Assembly: GCA_016212935.1 (NCBI GenBank) | Contig: JACRDE010000044.1 | Span: 1 to 34,023 of the forward strand | Source: Desulfomonile tiedjei | Lineage (GTDB): Bacteria; Desulfobacterota; Desulfomonilia; Desulfomonilales; Desulfomonilaceae | Length of the DNA stretch: 34,023 bases | Reading direction: 5' to 3' | In this document: positions 11,770-13,429 of the stretch, in pieces | How positions within the stretch are numbered: position 1 is the stretch's first letter | Layout of the letters: the number at the start of each line of letters is the position of its first letter | The notes under the pieces: generated by a model | The model's database searches: none | Seen by the model: the letters and a program-made list of their open reading frames with translations, nothing else | What the model was told of the DNA's origin: nothing | Program-made: the position numbers and the translations under genes

Positions 11770-11895
11770 TCATTGCCGGCTGTGAAAATATAGTGCCGGG
11801 GTTAAGTCGCGCCCTTCGAATAGTATGGCGGTCTTTTCGGGTTGGAGTTCGCTCCACCGTTGGATCCGCCACGATGCGTTTGCTGATTTAACCAT
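11770..11895 (-). pseudogene. N-terminal remnant of an AMP-forming acyl-CoA synthetase
   Basis: From ATG 11895 the minus strand reads about 33 residues typical of the N-terminus of acyl-CoA synthetases: NASWRIQRWSELQPEKTAIL followed by FEGRDLT, where the family continues YAEL. Here it breaks into unrelated sequence and stops at 11770. No further adenylate-forming motifs were seen downstream (11564-11769). It follows the CitE-like gene on the same strand, so it is likely the stump of a second gene of that operon. Family assignment rests on one short motif. Confidence 0.55.
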
Positions 11896-12067
11896 CAGAT
11901 CTTCTTGTAATTTGTATTTCCATAAAAGAAACCTGTCGTTTCTCATCGTCGTGGGCACAAACTATATGGCAACTCAGCATCGGGTGCCAATGCCCGGTTC
12001 AATACCATTGGAAAAGGACAGATTTCTTGCAACGGTGTTCATTCTGATCCGGGACCTTCAATTATTT

Positions 12068-12982
12068 CTATCCAGCCAGTCGAGTCAATGCCTCGGCATG
12101 CAATCGTTTCTTTTCCGCAACAGCCTCTGCCAATTCCAGTACTTTCAAGGCTCGCTTGTACACCGGAGTATCTACCATGCGGTCATCCAAAGTCGTAGAC
12201 GCCCGACCCTTTGCAAGGGCTTCCTCAAAAACATGCACCACTCTCTTTGCATGGATGATCTGGTCTTCTGCGGGTGAAAAGACTGAATTCAGTATGTCCA
12301 CCTGATCGGGATGAATGCAGAAAGCCCCTGTACACCCAAGTCTGCGGCCTCGTTCTGCAGCTTTCCGAAAACCGTCCCGGTCTTTGTAGCCTGCCACACT
12401 CCCGAGTATGCCGATGGGGCTTATTTCGGCTGCTTTGCAGACCGTAACCAGAGTGACAAGTGGCAAGAATAATTCAGTTCCTTCTGGAGACGGTTCCACC
12501 CCCAATTCCAGACAGTAGTCGTCCATTCCCAGGCTCATGGATTCGATCCTTGTGCCCGCGGCCAAGACTTCCTGCATTTTCATCAGACCTTTGGGGCTCT
12601 CAATGTGCAGAGAAAGTTTGATGCGGCCTTTTTCAATGCCGCGCTCTGATTCCAGACGGGCGACCAGCCTCTCAGTTCTTTTGACGTCATCCGAGGATTC
12701 GACCTTTGGGAGAAATATAGCATGAAGACCGGGATCAACCGCGGCTGCCACATCTTTTTCAAAAAAGACGGGGTCATTGTTCACGCGTACGAAAACTTCC
12801 GCACCCGTACGACGCACCATCCCGATAGATTCCTTTACCATTTCTCTGGCGGAATCCTTTTGGCTCAGAGGAATGGAGTCCTCCAAATCCAGGACTATAG
12901 CGTCCGCTCCTCTCAAGTGCGCCTTTTCTATGAAACGAGGAACATTAACCGGTAGAATTAGAAGTGATCGCTGCACTCTCAT
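12068..12982 (-). CDS. CitE-like aldolase/lyase (HpcH/HpaI family)
   Basis: 304 residues, the normal size for CitE-like proteins. N-terminal RSLLILPVNVPRFIEKA then GADAIVLDLEDSIP (the LDLEDS motif), VFVRVNN, HAIFLPKVES, LHIESPKGL (metal-binding Glu) and MDDYCLELG; GAFCIHPDQV lies near the C-terminus. The family cleaves or forms 3-hydroxy-acid CoA thioesters (citryl-, malyl- or methylmalyl-CoA) using Mg2+. No CitD or CitF genes are nearby, so it is probably not part of a citrate lyase complex but a stand-alone malyl-CoA-type lyase or thioesterase. An acyl-CoA synthetase stump follows, which would fit CoA-ester metabolism. The substrate cannot be set from sequence. Confidence 0.9.
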   Translation of the reverse strand: MRVQRSLLILPVNVPRFIEKAHLRGADAIVLDLEDSIPLSQKDSAREMVKESIGMVRRTGAEVFVRVNNDPVFFEKDVAAAVDPGLHAIFLPKVESSDDVKRTERLVARLESERGIEKGRIKLSLHIESPKGLMKMQEVLAAGTRIESMSLGMDDYCLELGVEPSPEGTELFLPLVTLVTVCKAAEISPIGILGSVAGYKDRDGFRKAAERGRRLGCTGAFCIHPDQVDILNSVFSPAEDQIIHAKRVVHVFEEALAKGRASTTLDDRMVDTPVYKRALKVLELAEAVAEKKRLHAEALTRLAG

Positions 12983-13054: not shown

Positions 13055-13429
13055 ATGAAAAAACCATGGTGCATTTGTGCAGTGCTGGTCTTGGTATGTT
13101 GGGGAATTTCCTGGTCTTCCGAGTGTGGGAATCAGACAAACTGCGCAGTAGTGGTTGCTCCGGCCTGTGCATTAAACCTTCCGGTACCTTGCGAGAAAAT
13201 ATCTGCCTACCCGCTGGCCCCGGAGAGACTTTGCGCTCCGCCCGTGTCGTGTGAGAAGATTTGCGCCCCTCCTGTAGCCCCTGAAAGGATTATCGCTGCA
13301 CCCGTTTCTCCGGCCAGATTGTGCTCGCAGCCTGTTGCTCCACAGCGAATGAATTATTCACCCCTCGCCCCTGAGAGAATGTGCACAGTCTGGACCAAGG
13401 AAAAAGAATCCGTGTCGAAGTGTCGCTAG
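13055..13429 (+). CDS. Secreted Cys/Pro protein made of seven decapeptide repeats
   Basis: 124 residues from ATG 13055, chosen over 13016 because AGGTGGG lies upstream and the signal peptide then starts properly (KKPWCICAVLVLVCWGISW). Residues 40-109 are seven back-to-back 10-residue units, for example CAPPVAPERI and CAPPVSCEKI. In each unit Pro is at position 4, Val/Leu at 5, Pro or Cys at 7, Lys/Arg at 9 and Ile/Leu/Met at 10, with no gaps. Cys opens three of the units and also closes the array (C110). The mature chain has ten Cys in about 100 residues (24, 30, 38, 46, 60, 66, 70, 90, 110, 123). I do not recognise the family. It could be a disulfide-linked surface or matrix protein, or a metal-binding one; neither is shown. 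Its last 4 nt overlap the converging zinc ribbon gene. Confidence 0.7.
   Translation: MKKPWCICAVLVLVCWGISWSSECGNQTNCAVVVAPACALNLPVPCEKISAYPLAPERLCAPPVSCEKICAPPVAPERIIAAPVSPARLCSQPVAPQRMNYSPLAPERMCTVWTKEKESVSKCR

What the first reader, a model, noticed from the sequence alone, without database searches (positions are those of the whole stretch)
13055..13429. Secreted protein of seven perfect-length decapeptide repeats with ten cysteines in the mature part
Units such as CAPPVAPERI repeat seven times with no insertions, alternating Pro-rich and basic-hydrophobic positions; Cys opens several units. The period, the signal peptide and the cysteine content do not match a family I know. A regular Pro-rich rod cross-linked by disulfides or binding metal would be a simple explanation.
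Basis: seen in the sequence. Interest (0 to 1): 0.55.

Follow-up and report, generated by a model that had tools for sequence, protein, structure and literature searches.

The report
Secreted cysteine-proline ten-residue repeat protein
A small, probably exported protein built of eight ten-residue units with a cysteine at most joints is a real, conserved gene so far seen only in one family of sulfate-reducing bacteria; it matches no known protein family and may be a disulfide-linked rod in the cell envelope.

Summary
Window 13055-13429 (+) encodes 124 residues: a signal-peptide-like start, seven gap-free decapeptides preceded by one atypical unit (eight in register), and a conserved C-terminal cap. 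Lag-10 self-identity was reached in 0 of 20000 shuffles. Ten cysteines follow the leader. It is a gene, not a chance frame: three other genomes encode relatives with the unit [C]xxP[VLI][AS]Px[RK][ILMV] and similar caps; two have eight gap-free units, one about four. In three of four genomes it lies divergently beside the same HpcH/HpaI aldolase gene. NG86 dN/dS between the two congeners is about 0.33. Beyond this bacterial family nothing convincing turned up in 395 sampled genomes of the phylum or in pattern-based collection scans; the other hits look like shadow frames. No Pfam, NCBIfam or PHROG match is credible, and two AlphaFold2 runs were uninformative (mean pLDDT 44 and 50). Best mechanism, inferred: an exported Pro-rich rod, oxidised by the VKOR-DsbA protein present in all four genomes and cross-linked through its periodic cysteines into an envelope polymer. 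Function is untested. A lineage-restricted orphan family, moderately interesting.

The parts
13055..13429 (+). decapeptide-repeat gene, 124 aa plus stop
   Evidence: relatives in three other genomes
13055..13120 (+). signal-peptide-like leader, residues 1-22 (cleavage site inferred)
   Evidence: direct reading: MKK, hydrophobic core, small residues; relatives have comparable leaders. No predictor run
13124..13144 (+). N-cap with Cys24 and Cys30 before VVVAP
   Evidence: Cys-x(5 to 7)-Cys near a following [VT]VVAP in window, L005 and L006 (in L006 the second Cys lies four residues before unit 1); L007 has a single Cys there
13142..13171 (+). unit 1, atypical (CAVVVAPACA)
13172..13381 (+). units 2-8, the seven decapeptides of the finding
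13382..13426 (+). C-cap CTVWTKEKESVSKCR; the C-T-x-[WY] start and the last Cys are shared with L005 and L006
   Evidence: similar C-x-x-Y-x(6)-C in L007
13012..13017 (+). candidate extended -10 box (TGnTAAAAT; TAAAAT here), 37 nt before the ATG
   Evidence: the same TGnTAAAAT precedes the gene in L005 and L007, not exactly in L006; not reported by the promoter scan
12068..12982 (-). divergent HpcH/HpaI aldolase (CitE-like) neighbour
   Evidence: Pfam PF03328 E 3.8e-43; beside the repeat gene in window, L005 and L007
13426..13629 (-). convergent 67-aa zinc-ribbon-like protein, conserved neighbour in L005
   Evidence: Pfam Zn_ribbon_4 E 0.00037, below its curated cut-off; 48% identity to the L005 neighbour

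Best explanation
An exported envelope protein of the Desulfomonile lineage: a capped array of Pro-rich decapeptides that stays largely extended (polyproline-II-like). Its periodic cysteines are oxidised after export by the VKOR-DsbA pathway and join neighbouring chains, giving a disulfide-linked rod or mesh in the periplasm or on the outer membrane. Shown: the array, the caps, conservation in four genomes, constraint on the coding frame between congeners, and presence of the oxidising proteins. Inferred: export, extended shape, disulfides, polymer, structural role. If the chain is polyproline II (about 3.1 angstrom and three residues per turn, recalled), successive unit cysteines are about 31 angstrom apart and 120 degrees turned, too far for bonds within one straight chain, which favours bonds between chains.
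For: Unit positions 4, 5, 7 and 9 are Pro, Val/Leu/Ile/Met, Pro and Arg/Lys nearly throughout in the three eight-unit proteins. Array cysteines (unit 1 to the cap's first residue) are in register 8 of 8 in L005 and 7 of 7 in L006, counted on the units printed. The caps persist while unit number goes from 8 to about 4. dN 0.61, dS 1.82 (NG86) for window against L005; identity by codon position 58, 59 and 38%. Leader-like start in all four. A VKOR-DsbA fusion in one open frame in 4 of 4 genomes (one read through). AlphaFold2 finds no globular fold, as for an extended chain, though three sequences alone could explain that failure.
Against: No direct sign of disulfides or of localisation. Cys number after the leader is not always even: 10, 10, 11 and 6. 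In the window five array Cys are in register and three are off register. Unit number differs in L007. VKOR-DsbA is general machinery and was not checked in relatives that lack the gene. dS is near saturation, so dN/dS is rough.
Confidence: 0.35

Rival explanations
1. A self-contained solenoid: one or two decapeptides form each coil, cysteines stack or bond within the molecule as a brace, and the caps close the ends.
For: Conserved caps around a variable number of units are typical of solenoids. The profile matches LPX-type leucine-rich-repeat chains of solved structures (best E 8.3e-10, chain 3g06_A), and a reversed profile matches nothing at E up to 1, so the likeness is directional.
Against: Period is 10, not 20 or more; no asparagine ladder (Asn 2, 1 and 0 in units 2-8 of the three proteins); no Pfam LRR model at E up to 10. 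A 20-residue super-period is not consistent: shuffle P 0.69, 0.03 and 0.14. Repeats inflate profile E-values.
Confidence: 0.2
2. A thiol-rich envelope protein that binds metals or metal sulfides, useful to a sulfate reducer.
For: Ten thiols in about 100 residues; sulfate-reducer habitat (general knowledge).
Against: No CxxC or CxC pair inside the array of L005 or L006; ten-residue spacing is unlike metallothioneins (recalled); none of the nine neighbouring proteins scanned is a metal-resistance family.
Confidence: 0.2
3. A fast-evolving orphan with little function, kept by drift beside the aldolase gene.
For: Convincing in only 4 of 18 family genomes; 37-43% identity; not beside the aldolase in the other 13 aldolase loci read.
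Against: dN/dS about 0.33 between congeners; unit, caps and eight-unit length kept in window, L005 and L006, the last at another locus.
Confidence: 0.12
4. A Sec-exported precursor whose cysteines are chemically modified (RiPP, bufferin-like).
For: Repeated Cys-containing cores behind a leader.
Against: MbnB/TglH/ChrH (MNIO) enzyme found in 0 of 4 genomes at E 0.001, while the control rang in 2 of 14 genomes. Other maturases were not searched.
Confidence: 0.05

Closest known systems
Mussel foot protein decapeptide arrays (recalled) and the His-Pro-rich decapeptide region of HPRG (one passage of PMC4101493 seen)
   Same: Pro-rich ten-residue tandem units in secreted proteins
   Different: DOPA or His chemistry instead of Cys; animal proteins; no shared family found. 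Analogy only
Disulfide-linked cysteine-rich envelope proteins of bacteria, such as chlamydial OmcB or clostridial exosporium CdeC (recalled)
   Same: the proposed covalent network of an exported Cys-rich protein
   Different: not decapeptide arrays; tested only through the Pfam and NCBIfam scans
LPX-type leucine-rich repeats
   Same: a directional profile match, probably through P-x-x-P-x-x-L spacing (the spacing is inferred, the alignment was not printed)
   Different: 20-residue period and Asn position absent
Pentapeptide-repeat proteins
   Same: their antisense and off-frame readings imitate APxRL or Cys-Pro arrays
   Different: the coding unit here is ten residues and no Pfam pentapeptide model matches

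Membership tests
Leucine-rich repeat (LPX type) | repeat period of 20 residues or more | tested here: not met
   period 10 in four proteins; super-period 20 inconsistent
Leucine-rich repeat (LPX type) | conserved asparagine in each repeat | tested here: not met
   Asn 2, 1 and 0 in units 2-8 of three proteins
Leucine-rich repeat (LPX type) | LRR sequence profile | tested here: inconclusive
   no Pfam LRR at E up to 10, but a PDB profile match at 8.3e-10 and NCBIfam NF011917 at 0.0024 in 2 of 4 members; reversed control 0
Pentapeptide repeat | A[DN]LxX five-residue repeat in the coding frame | tested here: not met
   no Pfam match; unit is ten residues
Bufferin / MNIO-modified RiPP | MNIO enzyme in the genome | tested here: not met
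   0 of 4 genomes
Disulfide-linked envelope protein | disulfide-dependent polymer in the envelope | not testable with these tools
   needs non-reducing gels and fractionation
Disulfide-linked envelope protein | export to an oxidising compartment with a disulfide pathway | tested here: inconclusive
   leader read by eye; VKOR and DSBA in 4 of 4 genomes

The most novel reading that the evidence does not exclude
A new kind of minimal ten-residue repeat scaffold, buttoned by a cysteine at each joint, that polymerises into an envelope structure special to this lineage, possibly the collar of Desulfomonile cells, whose molecular make-up I did not find described in two searches of the library.
Probability: 0.05. 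Interest if true: 0.75.

Novelty: new variant of a known kind. Interest (0 to 1): 0.36.

Why it matters
It defines a lineage-restricted family of probably exported repeat proteins with a very simple rule (about one Cys, two Pro and one basic residue per ten), small enough to synthesise and test. If it is a disulfide-linked scaffold, it would be an unusual structural material in an anaerobe and a candidate part of the distinctive Desulfomonile envelope.

Tried and rejected
Chance frame: rejected by shuffles, by relatives and by dN/dS. Shadow of another gene: the profile's weak hits mostly look like shadows. Of 38 non-family hit loci translated, 14 scored 7 or more on a crude pentapeptide pattern on the opposite strand. 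One, L023 (31 residues, E 0.005), does join two in-register Cys with PVAPDR, but it lies opposite a 143-residue frame that looks like a thioesterase (name recalled), so I took it for a shadow. L028, with eight Cys pairs at lag 10, is an off-frame reading inside a 603-residue pentapeptide-repeat frame. L019 is a short Cys-Glu-Glu-Pro run with no listed frame of 60 aa or more on its strand. The other 35 were judged from the printed translations alone, and some also from their frames. The antisense frames of the four family genes were read: all three frames in the window carry stops, the frames of some relatives are open, and none looked to me like a pentapeptide gene; no profile was run on them.

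Plasmid and phage tblastn with the M47 protein gave 1 and 5 records, mostly annotated as pentapeptide-repeat or tail proteins. I looked at three regions and translated two matches: one has Arg-Thr-Cys units in a record annotated as pentapeptide repeat on the same strand, one lies antisense to a tail protein and carries stops. I took them for shadow frames. Paralogues in the own genome: E 0.13 and worse with the single protein, 0.005 with the profile, a pentapeptide shadow.

Unit-by-unit orthology: same-index units are not clearly more alike than others (permutation P 0.89, 0.09 and 0.83), so units turn over or only the consensus is kept. DNA pattern for two joined units: 13 of 395 phylum genomes, 15 places of which one is the window; my count of the backward control is 11 places, so this is background; in the family 4 of 18 genomes, 11 places, all in the known genes. 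Collection scans: genome collection with the window protein, 25 stretches, no relative; with the alignment, 131 stretches, one relative, the M47 record; viral contigs, 152 stretches, none. These scans use short patterns and may leave out records near the window. Both structure predictions had low confidence, so no fold search was run. Paper searches: no listed title or abstract start concerns this protein (one listed none).

Full report
What is there. The frame 13055-13429 on the + strand reads 124 residues and a stop. After a leader of about 22 residues come Cys24 and Cys30, one atypical unit CAVVVAPACA, seven further ten-residue units without a gap, and a tail CTVWTKEKESVSKCR. The consensus is [C]-x-x-P-[VLI]-[AS]-P-x-[RK]-[ILMV]. 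Self-identity at lag 10 is 27 matches against a shuffle mean of 7.2; none of 20000 shuffles was as high.

It is a conserved gene. A search of 60 related genomes gave five with E up to 0.01: the window itself, G001 (same genus, 6.5 Mb in 2 contigs; by size probably D. tiedjei DCB-1, my inference), G011, G008 and G006. The G006 hit lies opposite a 428-residue frame that I read as a PQQ-type repeat protein, and was dropped. G011 is evidently the record 'MAG: Desulfomonile sp. isolate M47': the locus from the genome collection matches all 135 residues at 100% on a contig of the same length. L005 (G001) and L006 (G011) also have eight units with no gap inside the array; in L006 the second N-terminal Cys lies four residues before unit 1. 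L007 (G008) has a similar leader, an N-cap with one Cys, about three regular units after an atypical one, and a C-x-x-Y-x(6)-C tail. So unit number varies between genera while the caps stay.

Selection. In the 270-base array the window and L005 share 51% of bases, by codon position 58, 59 and 38%; NG86 dN 0.61 and dS 1.82, about 0.33, with dS near saturation. For window and M47 dS could not be computed; for L005 and M47 it is dN 0.57, dS 1.70. This is the pattern of a coding frame under moderate constraint. Units at the same index in two species are not clearly more alike than units at different indexes.

Neighbourhood. The gene is divergent from an HpcH/HpaI aldolase gene (PF03328) in the window, L005 and L007. 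In the window and G001 the order aldolase, repeat gene, zinc-ribbon-like gene, Mur-ligase-type (folC-like) gene, lptD is shared. Of 18 family genomes 16 have the aldolase at E up to 1e-30; in those 16 loci only these three show the repeat gene beside it. In M47 the gene is elsewhere, near the end of a 10-kb contig, divergent from a 608-residue membrane-protein-like frame. A TGnTAAAAT box lies upstream in three of four, which suggests an own promoter; the promoter scan did not report it.

Distribution. The three-sequence profile found the four members and, at E up to 0.1, weak matches in four other genomes of the family (8 of 18 in all); in the class 8 of 42 at E up to 0.01; in the phylum sample 20 of 395. 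I translated 38 non-family hit loci. None is a leader-led array of the unit; one, L023, shows two units by chance opposite another frame, and many lie opposite pentapeptide or other simple repeats. The best foreign one, G059 at E 6.6e-10, is a run of GCEL-type units with an internal stop, opposite a frame with its own repeats. So convincing members are 4 of 18 family genomes and none elsewhere in what I searched. Incomplete genomes make absences soft.

Known families. Pfam and NCBIfam gave no match for the window protein at E up to 10. Over the members only DUF5529 (E 2.6), a PHROG of unknown function (0.014), NF011917 (0.0024, in 2 of 4) and TIGR04523 (0.012) appeared. The profile matches LPX-type leucine-rich-repeat chains in the PDB, best 8.3e-10, and a reversed-profile control gives none at E up to 1. 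The shared element is probably P-x-x-P-x-x-L, but the period and the Asn position that define such repeats are not met. I keep this as a clue for a solenoid rival.

Mechanism. Each ten residues carry two prolines that disfavour helix and ordinary strand, a base, an aliphatic residue and, at the joint, mostly Cys. AlphaFold2 gave mean pLDDT 44.4 and 50.3 from three sequences, which neither supports nor excludes a fold. All four genomes have VKOR and DSBA matches in one open frame (the window genome's read through), so exported cysteines can be oxidised. I therefore rate a disulfide-linked extended envelope rod as most likely, with confidence 0.35; export, oxidation and polymer are inferred.

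Novel reading. Desulfomonile cells have a collar, a cell-wall invagination described as a distinct feature of the genus (passages of PMC7773648 seen). A lineage-specific, possibly cross-linked envelope protein is a candidate component. There is no evidence beyond co-occurrence in the genus, and the gene also occurs in two other genus-level groups whose cell shape I do not know.

Noticed in passing
L097 1501-2070 (-): A DsbA/FrnE-like protein has an in-frame TGA at the first Cys of its CxxC-type site (UPYC), and one TGA lies inside the DSBA match in G000, G001 and G008: a likely selenoprotein.
   Followed up: partly
window 11770-11958 (-): About 30-40 codons like the start of an AMP-dependent acyl-CoA ligase that is complete in G001 (L047 11449-13005) break off here: truncation, pseudogene or assembly join.
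   Followed up: no
L047 15509-18979 (-): A 1156-residue sensor-kinase-like frame with many near-identical PAS-type units in tandem, suggesting recent duplication.
   Followed up: no
loci, e.g. L030, L038, L046; L028: Antisense and off-frame readings of pentapeptide-repeat genes give long APxRLAPxRL or Arg-Thr-Cys arrays that match Pro-Arg-Cys repeat profiles: a trap for repeat searches.
   Followed up: yes
L095 1300-2900 (+): VKOR fused to a DsbA-like domain in the window's genome, a single-chain disulfide system in a lineage of sulfate reducers.
   Followed up: partly
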